This document shows positions 12,486-43,083 of a DNA stretch of 64,000 bases, piece by piece (the stretch's first letter is position 1; each line of letters begins with the position of its first letter). This DNA is from Planctomycetota bacterium. GTDB taxonomy: Bacteria; Planctomycetota; B15-G4. The position numbers and the translations under genes were made by a program. The notes under the pieces were generated by a model. The model searched no databases. It saw nothing but the letters and a program-made list of their open reading frames with translations, and was not told where the DNA came from. The stretch is from positions 62,001 through 126,000 of the forward strand of contig JAJDEP010000014.1 of the NCBI GenBank assembly GCA_029259715.1, given 5' to 3'.

Positions 12486-12917
12486 ATGGCCTACAGCGAC
12501 AAAGTCCTCGACCACTACAACAACCCCCGCAACGTCGGCAAGCTCGACAACGCCGACAAGACGGTGGGCACCGGCATCGTCGGCGCCCCCGAGTGCGGTG
12601 ACGTGATGAAGCTGCAGATCAAGGTCAGCGACGACGGCGTCATCGAAGACGCCAAGTTCAAGACCTTCGGCTGCGGATCCGCCATCGCCTCCTCGAGCCT
12701 GGCCACCGAATGGGTCAAGGGCAAGACGGTCGAACAGGCACTCGAGATCCGCAACACCGACATCGTCGAGGAGCTCTCGCTCCCGCCGGTGAAGATCCAC
12801 TGTTCGGTGCTCGCCGAGGACGCCATCCGCGCCGCCCTCAGCGATTACCGCAGCAAGCAGGGCACCCCCGGCGCGGCGCTGACCGACGCCCCCGCCCCGA
12901 GCGGCTCCGAAGGCTGA
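12486..12917 (+). CDS. iscU: Fe-S cluster assembly scaffold IscU
   Basis: YSDKVLDHYNNPRNVG; GAPECGDVMKLQIKV; FGCGSAIASSSLATEW; VKIHCSVLAEDAI. Confidence 0.96.
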   Translation: MAYSDKVLDHYNNPRNVGKLDNADKTVGTGIVGAPECGDVMKLQIKVSDDGVIEDAKFKTFGCGSAIASSSLATEWVKGKTVEQALEIRNTDIVEELSLPPVKIHCSVLAEDAIRAALSDYRSKQGTPGAALTDAPAPSGSEG

Positions 12918-12938
12918 CGCCCGGCGCGTCGTGATCCG

Positions 12939-13322
12939 ATGAGCAATTCAGCCTCCGCATCCACCGACACGGCCCCCGCCGAGGCCACACCCACGGTGCT
13001 GGTCACCGACCGGGCGGCCCGTGAATTCGAACACATCGTCGAAGAGAAGGGCTTGCCGCGCTGCACGGCCATGCGGCTCTCGGTCAAGGGCGGCGGGTGC
13101 TCAGGCTTCGAGTACCAGATCGATCTCGAGCGCAACGACGCGGACGAATTCGACATCGAGACCTTGCAGCACGGCGTGCGCGTCGTGATCGACATGAAGA
13201 GCGAGTTCTACATGGGCGGCACCACCATCGACTTCAACGAGTCGATCATGGAGCGCGGGTTCTCCTTCAAGAATCCCCACGCCAGCGGGACCTGTGGCTG
13301 TGGGTCGTCGTTCTCCATCTGA
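12939..13322 (+). CDS. iscA: Fe-S cluster assembly protein IscA/ErpA (HesB family)
   Basis: RLSVKGGGCSGFEYQI; C-terminal GTCGCGSSFSI. Confidence 0.9.
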   Translation: MSNSASASTDTAPAEATPTVLVTDRAAREFEHIVEEKGLPRCTAMRLSVKGGGCSGFEYQIDLERNDADEFDIETLQHGVRVVIDMKSEFYMGGTTIDFNESIMERGFSFKNPHASGTCGCGSSFSI

Positions 13323-13325
13323 ATC

Positions 13326-13919
13326 GTGGACGATTCGTCGGGCATGACCGCCTGCCCCCACTGCGGGGGCGAGACGCCGAGTTCGCTCGCGTGCCTGTCG
13401 TGCGAGCGCCCTCTCGTGGAGTCCCCGGAGGGCGACTGCTTCTCCCGGCTGGGACAGCCCCGCGGGATCGCTGACACGAGCGACCTCGAGACGCGCTTCC
13501 TGCGCCTGTCCCGGTTGCTGCACCCCGACTTCCACGGCGCGGCGGACGACGCGACCCGCCAGCTCGTCGTCGCCAACAGCGCCCTGCTGAACGAGGCCTA
13601 CGTCGTCCTGACAAGCCTTTCCCAACGGGCCGAATACCTGCTCGGCCTGATCGACGCCGAGGCCCTCGAACGCAACAAGACCCTCGCACCGGCCTTCCTG
13701 ATGGAGAGCATGGAACTGTCGGAGGCCGTCGAGGAGGCCACCGACAAGAGCGCGCTGGCCGGCTTCGCCAAGGACCTGCAGGCGCGCATCGACGCACGCC
13801 TCGCGCTCGTCGGTGACCCGTCCGCCTGGGACCCGCCGGACCTCGATGCCCTCGCCACCGCCCTGCACGAGATGAAAGTCTTCCGCCGCATCCTGCGCGA
13901 CGTCAGGGCCGTCGCCTGA
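13326..13919 (+). CDS. hscB: Fe-S co-chaperone HscB with N-terminal CxxC..CxxC element
   Basis: J-domain-like [12 protein letters not shown] (HPD); [24 protein letters not shown]-terminal CPHC...CLSC; lies between iscA and hscA. GTG start; ATG alternative at 13344. Confidence 0.88.
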
Positions 13920-13956
13920 GCGCCCCCACCGCCTTCCACCCGAAAAGCGCATCCTC

Positions 13957-15795
13957 ATGAGCAACGAGACAAGAGACGTCGTCATCGGCATCGACCTGGG
14001 GACGACCAATTCCCTGGCGGCCATCGTCGGCAAGGACGGTCCCCGCGTGCTGACCGACTCCCAGGGCGCCGCCCTGATCCCCTCGGTGGTCTCCTTCCTC
14101 GACGGCGGCGAAGTCATCGTCGGCGCGGAAGCCCGGGCCTTGTCCATCAGCAACCCCGAGCGGACGGTGCACTCGGTCAAGCGCCTCATGGGCCGGGGCA
14201 TGGCGGACCTCGCCGGGGAAGTCGACCGGCTGCCCTACACCGTCGTCGAATCGGACAACAGCAAGCTCGTGCGTATCGCCATCGGCGACAAGTCGATCAC
14301 CCCTCAGGAGATCTCGGCCCTGATCCTGGGCCGCGTGCGCGAGCAGGCCGAGGCGGCCCTGGGCTGCACCGTCGAGAAGGCCGTCATCACCGTGCCGGCC
14401 TACTTCGACGACGCTCAGCGCCAGGCGACGCGTGACGCGGCCAAGATCGCCGGCCTCACCGCCTTACGCATCGTCAACGAGCCCACCGCGGCCGCCCTCG
14501 CCTACGGACTCGACACCAGCCGCGAAGGCAACGTGGTCGTCTACGACCTGGGCGGCGGCACCTTCGACGTCTCGGTGCTCAAGATCACGCAGGGCGTCTT
14601 CAAGGTGGTGGCCACCGCTGGCGACACGCACCTGGGCGGCGACGACTTCGATCGCACCATCATGGAGGAGATCTTCGCCCTCATCACCGGCGGCGACAAC
14701 CGCCCGGGGAAGGTGCCCGCCGAGGCGCTGCAGCAGGTGCGGCTCTCCGCCGAAGCCATGAAGAAGGAGCTGAGCAGCGCCGAGAACGCCATGCTCGAGA
14801 TCGACGTGGGCGGCGAACAGCCCCTGCACTACGAGCTCGACCGTGCCCGCTTCGAGGCGATGATCGCGCCCTCCGTCGAACTCACATTGAAGTGCTGCCG
14901 GGCCGCGCTCGCCGATGCGGGCCTGCAAGCCGGCGACGTCGACGAGGTCGTGCTCGTGGGCGGCTCGACGCGCATCCCCATGGTGCGCCGTCGCTGCGCC
15001 GAGCTGTTCGACCGCGAGCCCCACACCGAGCTCGACCCCGACCGGGTGGTGGCCCTCGGCGCCGCCATCCAGGCCGACGTCCTCGCCGGCGGCAACAAGG
15101 ACCTGCTGCTGCTCGACGTGATCCCCCTCGCGTTGGGCATCGAGACGGTGGGCGGTGGCTTCGCCAAGCTGGTCACGCGCAACTCCACCGTCCCGTGCCG
15201 CGCCACCGAGATGTTCTCGACGTCCGTCGACAACCAGACCGGCATCGACGTGAACGTGTTCCAGGGCGAGCGCGAGATGGTGGCCGACTGTCGCCACCTC
15301 GGCAGTTTCAAGCTCTCGGGCGTGCCGCCGATGCCCGCCGGCCTGCCGCGCGTCGAGGTCACCTTCCTGGTGGACGCCGACGGGGTGCTGACGGTCACGG
15401 CCCGCGAGCAGCGCAGCGGCCAGGAGGCCTCCATCGACGTCGTGCCGAGCCACGGCCTCACCCGCGACGAGGTCAGGTCGATGGTCAAGGAGTCCATCGT
15501 CCATGCCCACGAGGACTTCGCGAACCGCGAGCTCGTCGAGCTGCGCAACAAGGCCAACAACCTCGTCTACGGGACGACCCGGGTGCTGGACATGCCCGAG
15601 ATGCCCTTCACCGACGAGCAACGCACCGACCTCAACGCCGACATCCAAAACCTCAAGAAGCTCGTCGGCGGCGACGACATCGAAGCCCTCAAGGCGGCCT
15701 GTGACGCCTTCGGCGAGAAGACCCAGGCGCTGGCCGATAACGTCATCGGCGAGGCCATCAAGGCCGAACTCAGCAAGGGCATGACCCAGGCCTGA
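13957..15795 (+). CDS. hscA: Fe-S assembly chaperone HscA (Hsp70 family)
   Basis: [72 protein letters not shown]. Confidence 0.95.
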
Positions 15796-34244: not shown

Positions 34245-35806
34245 GCCTCGTCGTGGCCACGCTCTACTGGACGGCCGTGGGCGGGCTGCTCATCTACGGC
34301 GTGAACTGTTACGTGCTCGCTCTGAGCTTCGGACGTCACCGGCACGCGCAAGGCCGGCGCGCGCTGGAGATCGAAGCCCAGGGCGTCGAGGAACCGGGCA
34401 TCGCGTCCCCATTGTCCGCGACGCCGGAGGCATGGGCGAACGCCTGCCTGCCCCGCGTCACCATCCAGCTCCCGCTCTACAACGAACGCTTCGTGGCGGA
34501 GCGACTCCTCGCCGCCGTCGCCACGCTGCGCCATCCCCGCGACCGCCTGCAGATCCAGGTCCTCGACGACTCCACCGACGACACGAGCGAGATCGTGTCG
34601 CGCTGGATCGCCGCCCACGGCGCGGGGCTCGACATCGAACACCGCCGCCGCGTCGACCGCACGGGCTTCAAGGCCGGCGCCCTGCGCGATGCCATGGCGA
34701 CGGCGACCGGCAGCTGCATCGCCATCTTCGACGCGGACTTCGTCCCGCCGGTCGACTTCCTCGAGCGCACGCTGCCGTTCCTGCTGCGCCCCGGCGTCGG
34801 GCTGGTGCAGGCCCGCTGGGGTCACCTCAACCGCGAGGTCTCGACCCTCACCCGGGCCCAGGCCCTCGCCATCGACGGGCACTTCGGCATCGAGCAACCC
34901 GCACGCTGCTGGAAGCGCTGGCTGCTCAACTTCAACGGCACCGCCGGGATCTGGCGCCGCGACGCCATCGACGCTGCCGGCGGCTGGCAGGCCGACACCC
35001 TCACCGAGGACCTCGACCTCTCCTACCGCGCGCAGCTCGCCGGCTGGCGCATCGAGTACCTGCCCTGGCTCGAGGTGCCGGCCGAGTTGCCCGTCACCCT
35101 CGCGGCCTTCAAGAGCCAGCAGCGGCGCTGGGCCAAGGGGTCGATCCAGACGGCGCGCAAGCTCCTGCCCCGGGTGCTGCGGGCCGACCTGCCGGTGCTC
35201 ACGAAGCTGCAGGCGGTGCTGCACCTGACGCACTACCTGGTGCACCCGCTCATGCTGGCGGTGGCGCTGCTCGCCGTCCCCATGCTCACGCTCTGGAAGG
35301 GCACCCTCGGACCTGGAGCCTTCGCTCTGGTCGCGGCAGCCCTGGTCATCGGCACCTGCGGGCCGTCGACGCTCTACATCACCAGCCAGCGGGCGCTGCG
35401 CGCGGACTGGCTCACCCGCTTGCGGTCGCTGCCCATGCTCATGCTCATCGGCACGGGCATCGCCGTCTCGAACACCCGCGCCGTGATCGAGGCCTTCCTC
35501 GGCATCGACAGCCCCTTCGTGCGCACGCCCAAGGACGCCGTCACCGACGCACAGCCCCTGCGCCGCGCGGGCGCCTACCGCCTGCCCCTCGACCTGCTGC
35601 CTCTCTTCGAGGCGGCCATGGCCGGCTGGTCGGCCTGGGGACTGGTGCTCTACCTCTCCGCCGAAAAGTACCTGATCGGTCCCTTTCTGCTGCTCTACGC
35701 CTGCGGATTCGGCTACGTCGCGTGGGTCTCCGCGACTGAGACGCTGCGGCGCCTGCTCAAGCGCCGCACATCCGGACGTGGCGTCGCCCACGCCGGTGCA
35801 TCGTAG
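34241..35806 (+). CDS. Family 2 glycosyltransferase (cellulose-synthase/CslA-like)
   Basis: VTIQLPLYNERFVAERLL; QVLDDSTDDT; IFDADFVPP; TEDLDLSYRAQLAGW; QQRRWAKGSIQ. Confidence 0.92.
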   Translation: MSLVVATLYWTAVGGLLIYGVNCYVLALSFGRHRHAQGRRALEIEAQGVEEPGIASPLSATPEAWANACLPRVTIQLPLYNERFVAERLLAAVATLRHPRDRLQIQVLDDSTDDTSEIVSRWIAAHGAGLDIEHRRRVDRTGFKAGALRDAMATATGSCIAIFDADFVPPVDFLERTLPFLLRPGVGLVQARWGHLNREVSTLTRAQALAIDGHFGIEQPARCWKRWLLNFNGTAGIWRRDAIDAAGGWQADTLTEDLDLSYRAQLAGWRIEYLPWLEVPAELPVTLAAFKSQQRRWAKGSIQTARKLLPRVLRADLPVLTKLQAVLHLTHYLVHPLMLAVALLAVPMLTLWKGTLGPGAFALVAAALVIGTCGPSTLYITSQRALRADWLTRLRSLPMLMLIGTGIAVSNTRAVIEAFLGIDSPFVRTPKDAVTDAQPLRRAGAYRLPLDLLPLFEAAMAGWSAWGLVLYLSAEKYLIGPFLLLYACGFGYVAWVSATETLRRLLKRRTSGRGVAHAGAS

Positions 35807-35846
35807 GCCGTACGCACTCCCCCTCACCCGCACCGAGTCGCCCGCG

Positions 35847-36842
35847 ATGAAGACCCTCACCACCATCTCCCTGGCCCTCGTGCTCTTCGCCGGGGCCGTG
35901 TGCGGTCAGCAGCCGCCGCTCTCGGACACCCCTGCTCCACGGCCCAAGACCGACCCGCCGCTGCTCGGCACGATCGGCTACCAACCGAAGGGCATCGACG
36001 ACCCCCGGCGCGCCGAGGACGCGGCAAGGCTGGCCGCCGCTCTCAAGAAGGTCGCCTGGGCAAAGCAGCAAGCCGACGAGCGCGAAGCCCAGCAGGGCCT
36101 CGTCCGGCTCGGCATCTACGCCCCCTACGACAAGCTGCTGCGCGCCCACGTCGAGCAGGGCCGCGTCGACTACGCGCGTCTCGCCGAAGACGAGATGAAC
36201 TTGCAGTCGTTTCTCGAGACCCTCGGCAAGGTCGTGCCGGCGAGCCTGAAGACCCCCGCCGAGCAGAAGGCCTTCTGGATCAACGCCTACAACGCGTTCA
36301 CGCTCCAGCTCATCCTCGACCACCTCCCAGGCATCGAGAGCATCAAGGACATCGCCAGCGGCGAGCGTTGGAAGGCCGTGCGCTGGGAGGTCGACGGCAA
36401 GCGCTACAGCCTCGACCAGATCGAGCACGAGATCCTGCGCCCCCTGGGCGACGCGCGCATCCACTTCGCCCTCGTGTGCGCGGCCCAGTCCTGCCCGGAT
36501 TTGCTGAGCGAGGCCTACCTGCCCGCCACCCTGGACGAGCAGCTCGACCGGGCCGGCCGCGCGTTCCTGGCGAGCACGGCCAAAGGCCTGAGCTTCGGCA
36601 CCGTGGACGGCACCCTGTGGGGCCGTAACCACGTCGTGCGCCTGTCGGCCATCTTCGACTGGTTCGAGGAGGACTTCGGCAGCAACGAGCGCGAGGTGAT
36701 CGACTTCGTGCTGAAGTTCGCGCCCCCGCCCGCCGCCGACTTCATCCGCGCCCACCGCGACGACCTCGACGTGCGCCACCTCGATTACGACTGGTCGCTC
36801 AACGGCCGCTCGGTGAGCGGCGGCCAGGCCGGCGGACGTTAG
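35847..36842 (+). CDS. DUF547 domain-containing secreted protein
   Basis: Signal peptide; EQKAFWINAYNAFTLQLILDHLP; DARIHFALVCAAQSCPDLLSEAY. Confidence 0.9.
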   Translation: MKTLTTISLALVLFAGAVCGQQPPLSDTPAPRPKTDPPLLGTIGYQPKGIDDPRRAEDAARLAAALKKVAWAKQQADEREAQQGLVRLGIYAPYDKLLRAHVEQGRVDYARLAEDEMNLQSFLETLGKVVPASLKTPAEQKAFWINAYNAFTLQLILDHLPGIESIKDIASGERWKAVRWEVDGKRYSLDQIEHEILRPLGDARIHFALVCAAQSCPDLLSEAYLPATLDEQLDRAGRAFLASTAKGLSFGTVDGTLWGRNHVVRLSAIFDWFEEDFGSNEREVIDFVLKFAPPPAADFIRAHRDDLDVRHLDYDWSLNGRSVSGGQAGGR

Positions 36843-37597
36843 GCCGGCGGCTCCGCCCCGGTCCGACGTGCCGGCCCGCCGGTGAGGCGCAGGCGCAGGA
36901 TGGTCGTGATGATCTTCCACCCGGCCAGGATGGTGCCCTTCACCGTCCCGGCGATCTTGCTTTGGCCCACGCGACGGCGGTAGTCGACCGGCACCTCGGT
37001 CACGCCCAGCCCGTGCTGCAGGGCGCGCACCTGCATCTCGACGGTCCAGCCGTAGTCGCGGTCGCGCATGCCGAGGCGCTCGTAGGCCTCGCGCCGGATC
37101 GCGCGGAACGGCCCCAGGTCGCTGTAGCGGTGGCCGAAGAACGCGCGGATCATCCCGGTGGCGAGCCAGTTGCCGAAGCGCTGCTGGGGCAGCATGGAGC
37201 CCGCCTCGCGTTGCCCCCGCACCCGCGAGCCGATGACCATGTCCGCCTGGCCCGAGACGATCGGCGCAATCACGTCGATCAACTGACCTGGATAGTCGCT
37301 GTAGTCGGCATCGAGGAAGACGATCACCTCGCAGGGCAGCAGCGCTGCGACGCCGGCGAGGCAGGCGGAGCCGTATCCGCGGCGTGCGGCGGCCACCACG
37401 CGGGCGCCCCCCGCCCGCGCCCGGTCCGCCGTGGCGTCGGTCGACCCGTTGTCCGCCACCACCACCTCATGCACCCCTCGGGCGGGCAGGTCGGCCAGGA
37501 CCCGTCCGATGGACGCCTCTTCATTCAGGGCGGGAATGACCACCGACACTCGCAATGGCCGCGGCTCCATGCGTCCCCCTTCATGCATTGAAATCAT
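36839..37597 (-). CDS. Family 2 glycosyltransferase (DPM1-like)
   Basis: VSVVIPALNEEASIGRVLADLP; VVADNGSTDAT; VIFLDADYSDYPGQL. Confidence 0.93.
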   Translation of the reverse strand: MISMHEGGRMEPRPLRVSVVIPALNEEASIGRVLADLPARGVHEVVVADNGSTDATADRARAGGARVVAAARRGYGSACLAGVAALLPCEVIVFLDADYSDYPGQLIDVIAPIVSGQADMVIGSRVRGQREAGSMLPQQRFGNWLATGMIRAFFGHRYSDLGPFRAIRREAYERLGMRDRDYGWTVEMQVRALQHGLGVTEVPVDYRRRVGQSKIAGTVKGTILAGWKIITTILRLRLTGGPARRTGAEPPA

Positions 37598-37709
37598 ACG
37601 GTGCGGTCGTCATCCTCGTGCGCTTCGGCGGTCGGGACGCGGGAAAACGAGACCGCCGCCTCGGACGGAACACACGTCCGCGACCACCCCCCGCTCCAGG
37701 AGGCACGCT

Positions 37710-38339
37710 TTGGAAGTCTTCTCCGACGTTGGCATGTGGCTGCGCTGGATCCACTTCGTCGCCGGCATCACTTGGATCGGCCTGCTGTGGTATTTCAACT
37801 TCATCAACGGCCCGTTCACCGGATCGCTCGAAGCGGACGTGCGCTCGAAGGTCATCCCGCAGCTCATGCCGCGGGCTCTGTGGTGGTTCCGTTGGGGCGC
37901 CGCCTTCACCTGGTTGAGCGGCACCGTCTACGCCTACGGCTTCATCGCCCCCCAGAATCCGGGCGGCACGATGAACTGGATCACCGAGAACATGCGGGGC
38001 CAGTGGCTCACCATGGGCTTCGTGTACGGCACGATCATGGCCTTCAACGTGTGGTTCGTGATCTGGCCGCGCCAGCAGAAGATCATCCGCGCGATCCAGT
38101 CGGGCAACGCGCCCGATCCGGCCTGGGGCAAGACGGCCACCAACGCCTCGCGCATCAACACCTACCTGTCGGTGCCGCTGCTCTTCGCCATGGGCGCGGG
38201 CAAGCACATGGGCGAGTTCGCCGAGGACCTGCCCACCGACTTCCTGGTGCCGGCCGCGCTGGTCACCGTGGTGGGCATGGCCTTCGCCTGGCTGTGCATC
38301 CACAAGATCGGCCCGGTCGCCGGCAAGGACTTCAAGTAG
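37710..38339 (+). CDS. Urate hydroxylase PuuD-like (DUF989) membrane domain protein without cytochrome c domain
   Basis: MWLRWIHFVAGITWIGLLWYFNFINGPF; LMPRALWWFRWGAAFTWLSG; RINTYLSVPLLFAMGAGKH; TTG start preceded by AGGAGG. Confidence 0.8.
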   Translation: MEVFSDVGMWLRWIHFVAGITWIGLLWYFNFINGPFTGSLEADVRSKVIPQLMPRALWWFRWGAAFTWLSGTVYAYGFIAPQNPGGTMNWITENMRGQWLTMGFVYGTIMAFNVWFVIWPRQQKIIRAIQSGNAPDPAWGKTATNASRINTYLSVPLLFAMGAGKHMGEFAEDLPTDFLVPAALVTVVGMAFAWLCIHKIGPVAGKDFK

Positions 38340-38371
38340 GACCGAGCCCCGCTCGCAAGACCGGCTCGCAC

Positions 38372-38410
38372 CAACGGGCGGCGCATCTCTGAGGGATGCG
38401 TCGCCCGTTG
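38372..38410. terminator. Strong 16-bp hairpin downstream of the PuuD-like gene
   Basis: CAACGGGCGgCGCATC-tctgagg-GATGCGtCGCCCGTTG (one G.U wobble); no obvious U tract. Confidence 0.6.
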
Positions 38411-38512
38411 CGTTGCACACGGCTGCAGCGTTGAACATCGCGGGGCCTTCAACGCCGCCGCTACCTTCACCGCGGCAGGATCGGTGCGCGCCACCGCCGT
38501 GGCCGCCGTCGA

Positions 38513-39355
38513 TCAGAGTTCGAGGGTCACGTCGACGGCAGCGGCGGCCTGCCTAGCCGTTACTTCGATCTCGAAGCGCTTCTCGCCCAGCGCCTCGTGC
38601 CATACGCCCACCGTGTAGTTCCCCGGCGGAACGTCCCGCAGGGTGTAGCTGCCGTCCGCGGCGGTCACGGCGAAGCAGGGGTGATCGAGGACGCCGATCC
38701 AGCCCTTCATCCAGGCGTGCACGTCACACTTGACCTCGATCATGACCTCGGCCCGCTTGAACTTGGTGGTGCGCGGATTCGCGTTCGCCGGCATCCCCCA
38801 GTTCGACGGCTTGTTGTTGTCGGGCTTGATGTGGACGTTGTGCATGGTCTCGTCGCTCGTCTTCACCGTGAGCTGCTGGCCCGTGCGCATGCCGAAGATG
38901 CGCGGCGTGTAGAGGCAGCCCACCTGATCCATGACCTTCTCGCCCTGCGGCTCGGGGTATTCCCACCGCTCCAGCCCGGTCTCGATCCAGACGAAGGCGT
39001 TGGCCAACCCGTTGCCCTCGCCCACCAGGACGCGGTCGTCGAGGTAGGTGCCGTCCTCGCCGGCACCGTGGCAGAAGGCGTCACCGGTCATCTTGATCAC
39101 CTCGCGCGGCGGCTGCAGGCCGTTGGCACGCACGTGCCCGGCGATGGTGCCCGCCGTCGACGGGTCGAAGGGCAGGATGGCGGGCTCCGACGTCTCGCCC
39201 CCGCCGGCTCCGGATCCGCCTCCGGAGGACGAAGAGCCGCCGCCGGGTGTGGCCGCATCCTCAGAATCGCCGCACCCCACGAGGAAGACGGCGAGCAACA
39301 GACTCGTTCCCGCCCACGCCCACCGCCGCTCTATACTCGTGCCCATGTCCTTCAT
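38513..39355 (-). CDS. Cupredoxin-like lipoprotein with C-terminal carboxypeptidase-regulatory-like domain
   Basis: LLLAVFLVGCGDS lipobox-like; ETMHNVH...VKCDVHAWMKGWIGV (Cu-ligand-like H..C..H..M); AADGSYTLRDVPPGNYTVGVWHEALGEK; AGGAGG upstream of ATG at 39355. Confidence 0.75.
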   Translation of the reverse strand: MKDMGTSIERRWAWAGTSLLLAVFLVGCGDSEDAATPGGGSSSSGGGSGAGGGETSEPAILPFDPSTAGTIAGHVRANGLQPPREVIKMTGDAFCHGAGEDGTYLDDRVLVGEGNGLANAFVWIETGLERWEYPEPQGEKVMDQVGCLYTPRIFGMRTGQQLTVKTSDETMHNVHIKPDNNKPSNWGMPANANPRTTKFKRAEVMIEVKCDVHAWMKGWIGVLDHPCFAVTAADGSYTLRDVPPGNYTVGVWHEALGEKRFEIEVTARQAAAAVDVTLEL

Positions 39356-39947
39356 CCGAACCATCCCTCCTGAAGAAGCCGACGGCCCGCTCCGCGCCCT
39401 CTATGACGCCGCGGAGAAGCGCGCCGGCAAGGTCTTCGGCATCCTGCGCATCCAGAGCCAGAACCCCGCCGTGCTGCGGGCCTCGATGCAGCTTTACCAA
39501 AGCGTGATGTTGGGTCCATCCCCCCTCGCCCGTTCCGAGCGCGAGGCCATGGCGGTGGTGGTCAGCCGGGCCAACGACTGCTTCTACTGAGTGAAGGCCC
39601 ACGAGGCCGACCTCCGTGCCGAGGTCGAAAAAGAACTGCTCGAAGACGGGATCGCCGCCTTGCCGGCCGCCCAGCAAGCCGCCGACCTGGCCACGGACCT
39701 CGCGGCCCAGGGCAGCGAGGCCGCGCTCCACCCGCGCCTGCGGGCGCTGCTGCAGTTCGCCGAGCGCCTGACCCTGGCCCCGGGCGACTTCCGCGAAGAG
39801 CATCTGGCCCCGCTGCGCGACGTGGGCCTCGACGACCGGGCCCTCCACGACGCGGCCCAGGTGGTCAGCTACTTCTGCTACATCAACCGCATCGCCGACG
39901 GCCTCGGCGTCGACCTCGAACCCGAGATGGGCTCACCGCCCGACTGA
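39345..39947 (+). CDS. AhpD/carboxymuconolactone-decarboxylase-like peroxidase-related protein, candidate selenoprotein (in-frame TGA at 39588-39590 read as Sec)
   Basis: Two ORFs in the same frame separated only by TGA: ...SEREAMAVVVSRANDCFY-[TGA]-VKAHEADLRAEV...; family core motif CxxC-x3-H expected exactly here, TGA replaces second Cys. Confidence 0.82.
39608..39627 (+). promoter_or_regulatory. Candidate bacterial SECIS element
   Basis: CGACCTC-cgtgcc-GAGGTCG, perfect 7-bp stem, 6-nt loop with G at loop position 2; loop starts 24 nt after the UGA. Confidence 0.65.
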
Positions 39948-40571
39948 CGGCCCCGGCGGACCGGAGTGGACGCGATGGCCGAACGGCGCCGCCCCGATGA
40001 CGGCCGCCTCGGCGTCCGCCAACTCGACGAAGCGCGCCTCGACGAGGTCGTCCGGGAAGGCCTGCCGGGCGAGGTCGACGAACATCTCGCCGTGCCGGGC
40101 CTCGGCCTGTTCGAGCGCCCGGTAGAGCGGGTGCAGCGTGGCGAGCGCGTCGCAGGCGATCAGGCAGGTGAAGCGTTCGTGCGAGCGCAGTTCGATCAGG
40201 GTCGAGACCATCAGCGCGTCGAGGTAGGGGTCGCCCCCGCGTCGCGTATCGGCGGCGGCCCTGTGCAGCCCCTCGGCGTAGGGACTGGGCGCGTCGGGAC
40301 GCAGGGCCTCGCCGCGCTCGGTCAACTCACGCACCACGCGGTGCAGGTGCTCGGTCTCCTCGCGCACCAGGCCGGCCAGCGCCAGCGCCAGCCCGGGCCG
40401 GTGCACGTTGCGGCGCAGCAGCGTCATGGCCGACGCGGCCGCCTTCAGCTCGCAGTGGGCGTGATCGCTGAGCAGTTCCCCGATGTTCATGGCCGCGGCC
40501 GGCGCCCACGTGTCCGGGGTGTCCGCGTGCAGACGGAACACGCCGGTGGCGCCGTCCGTTGTCCCGTCCAT
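39933..40571 (-). CDS. miaE: tRNA-(ms2io6A)-hydroxylase MiaE-like
   Basis: LLSDHAHCELKAAASAMTLLRRN; LVREETEHLHRVVRELTERG; DALMVSTLIELRSHERF; ALEQAEARHGEMFVDLA. Confidence 0.85.
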   Translation of the reverse strand: MDGTTDGATGVFRLHADTPDTWAPAAAMNIGELLSDHAHCELKAAASAMTLLRRNVHRPGLALALAGLVREETEHLHRVVRELTERGEALRPDAPSPYAEGLHRAAADTRRGGDPYLDALMVSTLIELRSHERFTCLIACDALATLHPLYRALEQAEARHGEMFVDLARQAFPDDLVEARFVELADAEAAVIGAAPFGHRVHSGPPGPSVGR

Positions 40572-40585
40572 GACGCCCGGCGCCA

Positions 40586-41062
40586 TCAGCGGCCCTCGCA
40601 CGACGGGCCACCGTCCGCGGGGCGCTCGCCGGACGGCCGCATTTCAGCCGGGCTCCCGCCCGCGGCGTCCCCGTTCACCGACTCGCTGCTCGCCGTCTCC
40701 CCGCTCGCCGCGCCTCCGCTGGAGGGTCGCGCGGCGTCGGCCGGCACCTCCACGAGCACCCGGCCGCCCTGCTCCCGCGCCGCAAAGAGCGGGATCGACG
40801 CGCCCGGCGCCATCTCGCACTCACCCGTGGCCAGGTCGAAGCGCCACAGGTGCCATGAGCAGGTGATGCCGCCCGGGTCGAGCAGGCCATCCGAGAGGTC
40901 GGCCTGCTGATGCGGGCACAGCGCGCCGAAGGCCGACAGCCGCCCCCCCTGGCGGGCGACCGCGACGGCCACGCCCGCGATCAGTCGGCTCAGCACCTCT
41001 CCCTCGCCGAGGTCCGCCGCAGCGCAGAAATCGTGCAGAGTTCCGGGGGCGGGGGGCGGCAT
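40586..41062 (-). CDS. Rieske [2Fe-2S] ferredoxin-like protein
   Basis: ALCPHQQADLSDGLLDPGGITCSWHLWRFDLATGEC (CxH...CxxH). Confidence 0.88.
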   Translation of the reverse strand: MPPPAPGTLHDFCAAADLGEGEVLSRLIAGVAVAVARQGGRLSAFGALCPHQQADLSDGLLDPGGITCSWHLWRFDLATGECEMAPGASIPLFAAREQGGRVLVEVPADAARPSSGGAASGETASSESVNGDAAGGSPAEMRPSGERPADGGPSCEGR

Positions 41063-41125
41063 GGCGGGGGCACGGGTCCGGTTTGGCGAGGCGTCGGATC
41101 GACGTGGGGCTGCTAAGATCATGGC

Positions 41126-41728
41126 ATGAATGACGACCTCGCGCCCGGGGCCACCCCCGACCCCCACTCCGCCACCCTCAGCCGCTCCGCTGCCTTCGCC
41201 GGCACGCGCCGCGTCTTCCTCTTCGGCGACATCAACGCCGCGGTGGCCGAGCGGGTGGTGAACCAGCTGCTCGAGTTCACCGAGCGTGACCCGGGCGAGC
41301 CCATCGACCTGCTGATCAACTCGGTGGGCGGCGACGTCGAGGCGGCCTGCGCCATCGTCAACGCCATGCACGGCATCCCCAGCCGGGTGAACACCGTCTG
41401 CATGGGCTTCGCCCAGAGCGCCGCCTGCATCATCCTCATGGCCGGCACCGGCGTGCGCACCGCCTTCGAGAACTCGGTGCTGCTGATCCACCGCATGGTC
41501 TGGGACGAGACCCACACCGACCACGACGGCGAGGAGCAGTACCTGCCGCCGCCCGACGAGAAATACGTCGAGTTGTGTCGCCGCCTGGAGAATGCCTACC
41601 TGGGACGCTTCCTCGATCACGACGCCCTGTGGGCCGAGAAGTCCATCCCCACGGCCCTCGACATGTCGACGGACGACGCGCTGCGGCTCGGCGTCATCGA
41701 CGGGGTGATCTTCCTCAACCAGGCCTGA
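41126..41728 (+). CDS. ClpP-like serine protease
   Basis: RRVFLFGDINAAVAERVVNQLLEF; LINSVGGDVEAACAIVNAM; CMGFAQSAACIILMAG; SVLLIHRMVW. Confidence 0.9.
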   Translation: MNDDLAPGATPDPHSATLSRSAAFAGTRRVFLFGDINAAVAERVVNQLLEFTERDPGEPIDLLINSVGGDVEAACAIVNAMHGIPSRVNTVCMGFAQSAACIILMAGTGVRTAFENSVLLIHRMVWDETHTDHDGEEQYLPPPDEKYVELCRRLENAYLGRFLDHDALWAEKSIPTALDMSTDDALRLGVIDGVIFLNQA

Positions 41729-41868
41729 CGGGCACACGGGCAGGCCACGGGCGGGGTCACAGGGAGGCTCAGCCGACCCGCAAATCGGGCGATCGGGCTA
41801 CAGCCTGACCGGCCGACTTCCGACACATCGTGTAGACTCCTCCGTTCCCCTTCCCCCCAGCGCAAGCC

Positions 41869-43083
41869 ATGCTCCGCAAGGCCATCAAGCAGTTCCAACT
41901 CGGCGTCAAGAACCCCATCCAGGGCGCCCGCATCCTCGCCTCCGAGGCCAAGATGCGCGCCGGCATCCGCACGCTGCGCAGCGTCGAGATGGCGGTCACC
42001 TGGATCTGCAACCTCGACTGCGACTTCTGCTACGCCGAAGACCTGATGAAGGCGCAGAAGAAGCCGCCCCACATGCCGGTGGAGGAGGTGCGCCGGATCA
42101 TGCAGGAGGCCCACGACCTCGGCATGATCCACGTCAACATCACCGGCGGCGAGCCGATGGTGCGCAAGGACATCTACGACGTCGTCGACGCCGTGCCCAA
42201 GGACGTGGTCGTCTCCCTCGTGACCAACAGCACCCTGCTGACCGAGGAGAAGGTCGACAAGCTCAAGGACGCCGGGCTCTCCACGATCCAGATGAGCTAC
42301 GGCAGCTACTACCACGACAGCTTCAAGCGCGACCTCGCCCGTTACTGCGTGAGCAAGGGCATCTCGGTCACGCTCTCGGTGGTGAACATCGCGTCCGAGC
42401 GCGCGAACATCGAAGCCGCCTTCGCCATGGCCGAGGAGGACGACTTCTCGGTGCTGTTCAACTACCCGATGATCTACAAGAACGTCGGGCTCGACAGCGA
42501 GTTCTACTGGAAGATGCGCTACCACCCGCGCTGCCGCGAGGACAACATGTTCTGGAGCGGCAAGGATCGCTGCCCGGCCGGCACGCACAAGGTCTACGTC
42601 ACCAACGACGGCGACGTCATGACCTGCGACCGCATCCACGCCATCTACGGCAACGTGAACGACGAGCCGCTGGCCGACATCCACAAGCGCATGTACGACA
42701 AGTTCATCCAGCACAAGTCGTTCTGCCTGCTCGAGACCTGCGACAAGCAGTGGCTCAAGAACAACGAGAAGGCGGGCCGCAACTACTCCACCGACCTGCT
42801 CGGCACCCGCAGCGATCCCTTCAACGTGTTCGAGGGGACGCCGCTCATGGAGGGCTCCGTGGAGGGCTCGACCATGGCCAAGGAGATCCACGCCGCCCGG
42901 CTGGCCTCGGCGAAGCCCGACCTGGGCGAGCCGCAGACCAGCGGCAACGGTGCTGCCAACGGCAACGGTGCCGCGAATGGCAGCGCTCCCAACGGCAAGG
43001 GGTCGACCAACGGCAGCGAGGCCGCGACGCCGGACGCCCAGGCTTCCGACACGCCCTCGCCGAGCGAGACGCCCTCGGCCTAG
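41869..43083 (+). CDS. Radical SAM protein with low-complexity C-terminal tail
   Basis: TWICNLDCDFCYAEDLM (CxxxCxxC); HVNITGGEPMVRKD; C-terminal CPAG...TCDR...SFCLLETC SPASM-like cysteines; GNGAANGNGAANGS tail. Confidence 0.9.
   Translation: MLRKAIKQFQLGVKNPIQGARILASEAKMRAGIRTLRSVEMAVTWICNLDCDFCYAEDLMKAQKKPPHMPVEEVRRIMQEAHDLGMIHVNITGGEPMVRKDIYDVVDAVPKDVVVSLVTNSTLLTEEKVDKLKDAGLSTIQMSYGSYYHDSFKRDLARYCVSKGISVTLSVVNIASERANIEAAFAMAEEDDFSVLFNYPMIYKNVGLDSEFYWKMRYHPRCREDNMFWSGKDRCPAGTHKVYVTNDGDVMTCDRIHAIYGNVNDEPLADIHKRMYDKFIQHKSFCLLETCDKQWLKNNEKAGRNYSTDLLGTRSDPFNVFEGTPLMEGSVEGSTMAKEIHAARLASAKPDLGEPQTSGNGAANGNGAANGSAPNGKGSTNGSEAATPDAQASDTPSPSETPSA

What the first reader, a model, noticed from the sequence alone, without database searches (positions are those of the whole stretch)
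39345..39947. Probable selenoprotein: AhpD/CMD-like protein with in-frame UGA giving a CxxU redox motif
Seen directly: the ORF starting at 39345 ends at TGA 39588-39590 and the same frame stays open for another 118 codons. Reading through gives ...LARSEREAMAVVVSRANDCFY[U]VKAHEADLRAEVEKELL.... In AhpD/peroxidase-related carboxymuconolactone-decarboxylase-like proteins the catalytic motif is C-x-x-C-x3-H, and the TGA sits exactly where the second Cys belongs (C-F-Y-U-V-K-A-H). Both halves are family-like and together give a ~200-aa protein of normal size. AhpD-like CxxU proteins are an established class of bacterial selenoprotein. Gene callers will split or truncate this gene.
Basis: partly seen in the sequence, partly recalled or inferred. 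Interest (0 to 1): 0.9.

Follow-up and report, generated by a model that had tools for sequence, protein, structure and literature searches.

The report
AhpD-like redox selenoprotein, CxxU active site
A gene that ordinary gene finders would cut in two at a TGA codon is one complete selenocysteine-containing, peroxidase-type redox protein, and it belongs to a selenoprotein family that has been known since 2005.

Summary
Read through TGA 39588-39590, the frame gives one 200-aa protein. It scores 130.1 bits against TIGR01926 "peroxidase-related enzyme" (cut-off 81.8) and folds as one AhpD-like domain (mean pLDDT 97.4; best PDB match 2oyo). The TGA stands at the second residue of the C-x-x-C-x3-H site. 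The genome has selA, selB, selD and tRNA-Sec with anticodon UCA. Of 69 homologue rows, 63 have TGA at exactly this column and four have Cys. Genomes with a TGA homologue carry selA in 45 of 48 cases, the others in 25 of 50. A hairpin of bacterial SECIS type follows the TGA, with covariation and codon choice beyond what the protein needs. The genome has a second, diverged CxxU paralogue, and its SelD also has an in-frame TGA. The family is not new: "AhpD-like protein, TIGR01926, CxxU" is a listed selenoprotein family (PMC13188914; first described in PMC1088965). Sec insertion and the peroxidase role are inferred, not shown.

The parts
39345..39947 (+). AhpD-like peroxidase-related selenoprotein gene, 200 aa with Sec82 (TIGR01926 / Pfam CMD)
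39588..39590 (+). In-frame TGA read as selenocysteine 82, at the place of the second Cys of C-x-x-C-x3-H
   Evidence: Same column is TGA in 63 of 69 homologue rows, Cys in 4
39579..39581 (+). Codon of Cys79, the partner (resolving) cysteine of CxxU
   Evidence: Invariant in the 38-sequence alignment
39600..39602 (+). Codon of His86, proton-relay histidine
   Evidence: Invariant in alignment; equivalent of His55 in PA0269 and His137 in M. tuberculosis AhpD by spacing
39543..39545 (+). Codon of Glu67, proton-relay glutamate (12 residues before Cys79)
   Evidence: 90% or more conserved; same spacing as Glu36/Cys48 of PA0269
39608..39627 (+). Predicted bacterial SECIS hairpin: stem CGACCUC / GAGGUCG with apical loop CGUGCC, 17 nt after the TGA
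   Evidence: synonymous-codon constraint

Best explanation
The gene encodes a selenoprotein of the AhpD-like / peroxidase-related (TIGR01926) family. Shown by sequence: one continuous reading frame across the TGA, the AhpD fold (predicted), the five proton-relay positions E67-C79-Y81-U82-H86, and the complete Sec machinery in the genome. Inferred from established bacterial Sec biology: SelB carrying Sec-tRNA(UCA) binds the hairpin just after the UGA and inserts Sec at position 82. Inferred from AhpD enzymology: the Sec82 selenolate, activated by E67 and H86, attacks the peroxide (or accepts electrons and hands them on). Cys79 then resolves it as a selenenyl-sulphide bond, which a cellular thiol reductant reopens. 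The natural substrate and the partner reductant are not known.
For: TIGR01926 match at 130.1 bits, cut-off 81.8, residues 9-193 across the TGA. In the same genome: selB over cut-off, selA over cut-off, selD over cut-off, tRNA-Sec at 70.9 bits, anticodon TCA. TGA at the exact column in 63 of 69 rows. Co-occurrence with selA 45/48 against 25/50, Fisher p = 1.2e-6. Hairpin with 93.5% of cells paired, 12 double-changed cells, 0 of 500 shuffles as high, slid versions 31-53% paired. The Leu codon at +8 is CTC in 32 of 32 (46% elsewhere in these genes) and the Arg codon at +9 avoids CGC in 32 of 34. Fold mean pLDDT 97.4. PDB neighbours are CxxC AhpD-like proteins. Gene order is largely shared in four genomes of the same family.
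Against: No direct proof of Sec insertion. The hairpin energy is only modestly below shuffles in this sequence (z = -1.96; mean over 63 genes -0.77). No Rfam family matched it. The covariation test used 24 sequences chosen after inspecting which hairpin register they carry; several relatives have a different register. Three genomes with a TGA homologue lack a full selA (G004, G061, G072); all three are draft genomes. The sel genes lie on a different contig from the window.
Confidence: 0.97

Rival explanations
1. The TGA is a sequencing or assembly error for TGC/TGT, and the protein is an ordinary CxxC AhpD-like protein.
For: Cys homologues exist at this column (TGC or TGT in 4 of 69 rows).
Against: 63 of 69 homologue rows from dozens of independent genomes carry the same TGA, the genome has full Sec machinery, and the downstream codons show RNA-level constraint.
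Confidence: 0.005
2. The TGA is a real stop: a pseudogene, or two genes, an N-terminal half ending at 39590 and a C-terminal half starting at GTG 39591.
For: The mechanical ORF list shows two ORFs.
Against: Both halves stay under coding constraint, fold as one domain, keep the other catalytic residues across the break, and the break is at the same codon across the phylum.
Confidence: 0.005
3. UGA is read as another amino acid (for example Cys or Trp) in this lineage, and Sec is not involved.
For: UGA falls where Cys is found in homologues.
Against: ARAGORN finds a Sec-type tRNA with anticodon UCA alongside SelA, SelB and SelD. UGA also ends this gene (39945-39947) and an IscA-like gene at 13322, so it is a stop elsewhere. 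Genomes with TGA at this column are those with selA.
Confidence: 0.015

Closest known systems
AhpD-like selenoprotein family (TIGR01926, CxxU), listed in PMC13188914 and first described from the Sargasso Sea (PMC1088965)
   Same: Same NCBI family model, same CxxU motif, and a downstream stem-loop of SECIS type.
   Different: Nothing essential; a new member in an unnamed, mostly draft-genome lineage. Another diverged Sec paralogue stands in the same genome.
TIGR01926-like Cys proteins of known structure: 2oyo (Deinococcus geothermalis), 6k40 (D. radiodurans AhpD), 3c1l (Mesorhizobium loti mlr4105), 2pfx, 2prr
   Same: Same fold (TM-score 0.76-0.82 by query length, 26-32% identity); the four printed alignments have the same site C-x-x-C-x3-H.
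   Different: Cys instead of Sec at the second position.
M. tuberculosis AhpD (1gu9/1knc) and P. aeruginosa PA0269 (2o4d)
   Same: Proton-relay spacing E-x11-C-x-[H/Y]-C-x3-H, matched here by E67-C79-Y81-U82-H86 (PMC3141380).
   Different: Distant in sequence; Cys enzymes. M. tuberculosis AhpD matches only over 48 profile positions.
NF041238 AhpD_rel_CFYUT (seleno)protein
   Same: Related CxxU AhpD selenoprotein with a CFYU motif.
   Different: This protein scores 56.1 bits against a cut-off of 175, so it is not a member.

Membership tests
TIGR01926 peroxidase-related enzyme (AhpD-like) | Score above the curated cut-off (81.8 bits) | tested here: met
   130.1 bits, profile 8-177 of 178
TIGR01926 peroxidase-related enzyme (AhpD-like) | C-x-x-[C/U]-x3-H with upstream Glu (proton relay) | tested here: met
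   E67, C79, Y81, U82, H86; C79, Y81, position 82 and H86 invariant over 38 sequences, spacing as in PMC3141380
TIGR01926 peroxidase-related enzyme (AhpD-like) | All-helical AhpD-like fold | tested here: met
   Model pLDDT 97.4; 2oyo, 6k40, 3c1l best matches
TIGR01926 peroxidase-related enzyme (AhpD-like) | Peroxidase or thiol-oxidoreductase activity | not testable with these tools
   Needs an enzyme assay
Bacterial selenoprotein | Genome encodes SelA, SelB, SelD and tRNA-Sec | tested here: met
Bacterial selenoprotein | In-frame UGA at a column where homologues have UGA or Cys | tested here: met
   63 TGA, 4 Cys, 1 Leu, 1 Gly of 69
Bacterial selenoprotein | SECIS stem-loop shortly 3' of the UGA with G early in the apical loop | tested here: met
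   Hairpin 39608-39627, loop CGUGCC; covariation and codon constraint. No Rfam model matched
Bacterial selenoprotein | Sec present in the protein | not testable with these tools
   Needs mass spectrometry or 75Se labelling
NF041238 AhpD_rel_CFYUT | Score above cut-off (175 bits) | tested here: not met
   56.1 bits
TIGR00777 AhpD proper | Score above cut-off (191.95 bits) | tested here: not met
   21.6 bits

The most novel reading that the evidence does not exclude
In this phylum the AhpD-like TIGR01926 protein is by default a selenoprotein, duplicated into at least two Sec-keeping groups. Its SECIS hairpin sits in different registers in different members, so the RNA signal appears to have moved within a conserved coding sequence while the Sec residue stayed fixed.
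Probability: 0.5. Interest if true: 0.35.

Novelty: new member of a known kind. Interest (0 to 1): 0.22.

Why it matters
It corrects a gene that standard calling would split, adds at least three selenoprotein genes (two AhpD-like and SelD) to this genome's list, and gives a deep set of homologues in which SECIS evolution inside a coding sequence can be followed. It does not change what is known about Sec coding.

Tried and rejected
Rfam search of the stretch after the TGA found no SECIS or other credible RNA family; the same for the paralogue. Single-sequence folding energies alone are weak evidence, so codon constraint and covariation were used instead. A scan of the 64-kb window for other in-frame TGAs with coding-like frames on both sides gave no second good candidate with a CxxU or UxxC pair. 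The zinc-ribbon-like one at 13320 is simply the true stop of an IscA-like gene before an HscB-like gene. The genome-contig scan gave only one distant locus. One attempt at a lineage marker (Pfam PSCyt1) was uninformative, so the phylum is not named.

Full report
Observation. The sequence at 39345-39947 is as described. An ATG-started frame meets TGA at 39588-39590 and stays open for 118 further codons to TGA 39945-39947. Read through, it gives a 200-residue protein with C79-F-Y-U82-V-K-A-H86.

One protein, not two. A single NCBI family model, TIGR01926 (peroxidase-related enzyme), covers residues 9-193 in one register with 130.1 bits, cut-off 81.8; Pfam gives CMD at 41-95. AlphaFold2 on an alignment of 38 sequences (Sec entered as Cys) gives mean pLDDT 97.4 over the whole chain, with the CxxU site at the start of helix 80-100. 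The best solved neighbours are the AhpD-like proteins 2oyo, 6k40, 3c1l, 2pfx and 2prr. Substitutions against the closest relative pile up at third codon positions on both sides of the TGA.

Sec machinery. In the window's own genome (G000, 92% complete), all four genes are present over their curated cut-offs: selB at C15:103187-105058, selA at C15:587643-588974, selD at C15:586672-587598 and tRNA-Sec at C15:583211-583303 (anticodon TCA by ARAGORN). The selD gene itself has an in-frame TGA, in LTNYANCAG[U]AAK, which from my knowledge of SelD is the catalytic Sec/Cys position.

Homologues. A protein search of 98 genomes (the window's own and relatives, most of them of the same phylum) found matches in 65; the strong matches nearly all have one TGA inside. 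Reading the codon at the aligned column in 69 rows gives TGA 63, TGC 3, TGT 1, TTG 1, GGG 1. The few Cys homologues have the ordinary CxxC site. Genomes with a TGA homologue have selA over the cut-off in 45 of 48 cases; the other genomes have it in 25 of 50 (Fisher p = 1.2e-6, not corrected for relatedness). The three exceptions (G004, G061, G072) are draft genomes 84-90% complete.

SECIS. After the TGA most close orthologues can form a hairpin from DNA offset 20 to 39, here 39608-39627, stem CGACCUC/GAGGUCG with loop CGUGCC; others have the loop GGUC. In 24 sequences that carry this register, 93.5% of cells pair, against 31-53% for slid versions, and 12 cells change on both sides, with 0 of 500 shuffles as high. 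This set was chosen after inspection, so the numbers lean towards the structure. A test less dependent on that choice is codon use over 35 sequences: the Leu codon 8 after the TGA is CTC in 32 of 32 (46% elsewhere in these genes), and the Arg codon 9 after it avoids the commonest codon CGC in 32 of 34 (binomial p about 2e-11 and 1.5e-8, not corrected for relatedness). The RNA, not only the protein, is therefore under selection there. Some relatives use a different register, with stem ACGGGGA/UCUCCGU and loop GGA. The second paralogue group, including the copy in this genome at C5:33518-34066, has stem CCGGCGC and loop GGUCU at codons +7/+8. From memory, that is the loop and position of the E. 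coli fdhF SECIS; this comparison was not run here.

Mechanism. In PA0269 and M. tuberculosis AhpD the proton relay is Glu-x11-Cys-x-(Tyr/His)-Cys-x3-His (PMC3141380). The window protein has E67, C79, Y81, U82 and H86 at the same spacing; C79, Y81, position 82 and H86 are invariant and E67 nearly so in 38 sequences. Sec therefore replaces the second catalytic cysteine (Cys133 of M. tuberculosis AhpD). Inference: Sec82 attacks the peroxide or disulphide and Cys79 resolves it. Substrate and reductant are unknown; the neighbours (a Urate_ox_N membrane protein, a carboxypeptidase-regulatory-domain protein, MiaE, a Clp protease, a radical SAM protein) keep much of this order in four family members but do not name a partner.

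Known or new. The 2026 review PMC13188914 lists "AhpD-like protein, TIGR01926, CxxU" as an established selenoprotein family. It was found in the Sargasso Sea data in 2005 (PMC1088965: 27 sequences, CXXU), and AhpD-like 1 and 2 were counted again in 2008 (PMC2398784).

Noticed in passing
G000:C5:33518-34066 (-), loci L002 and L019: A second AhpD-like gene in the same genome, about 36-41% identical, also with in-frame TGA (C-H-Y-U-I-D-H-H) and a hairpin CCGGCGC-GGUCU-GCGCCGG after it.
   Followed up: yes
G000:C15:586672-587598 (-), locus L023: selD is itself apparently a selenoprotein gene: TGA in LTNYANCAG[U]AAK.
   Followed up: yes
Loci L030, L031, L032, L054, L063: In these relatives the stem-loop after the TGA is in another register (stem ACGGGGA or ACGGAGA / UCUCCGU, loop GGA), as if the SECIS had shifted within the same conserved codons.
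   Followed up: partly
L082 (G081:C155:92378-94533): Two tandem AhpD-like genes, one with TGA and the other with Leu (TTG) at the same column; L086 (G057) has Gly there. These copies may have lost the redox pair.
   Followed up: no
12486-15795: Isc operon order IscU, IscA, HscB, HscA, judged by reading the ORFs; the TGA at 13320-13322 between the CGCG and CPHC motifs is the true stop of IscA, not a Sec codon.
   Followed up: partly
35778-43083: Gene order around the selenoprotein (DUF547, GT2, Urate_ox_N protein, carboxypeptidase-regulatory-domain protein, AhpD-U, MiaE, Rieske-like, Clp protease, radical SAM/SPASM) is largely kept in four genomes of the same family.
   Followed up: partly
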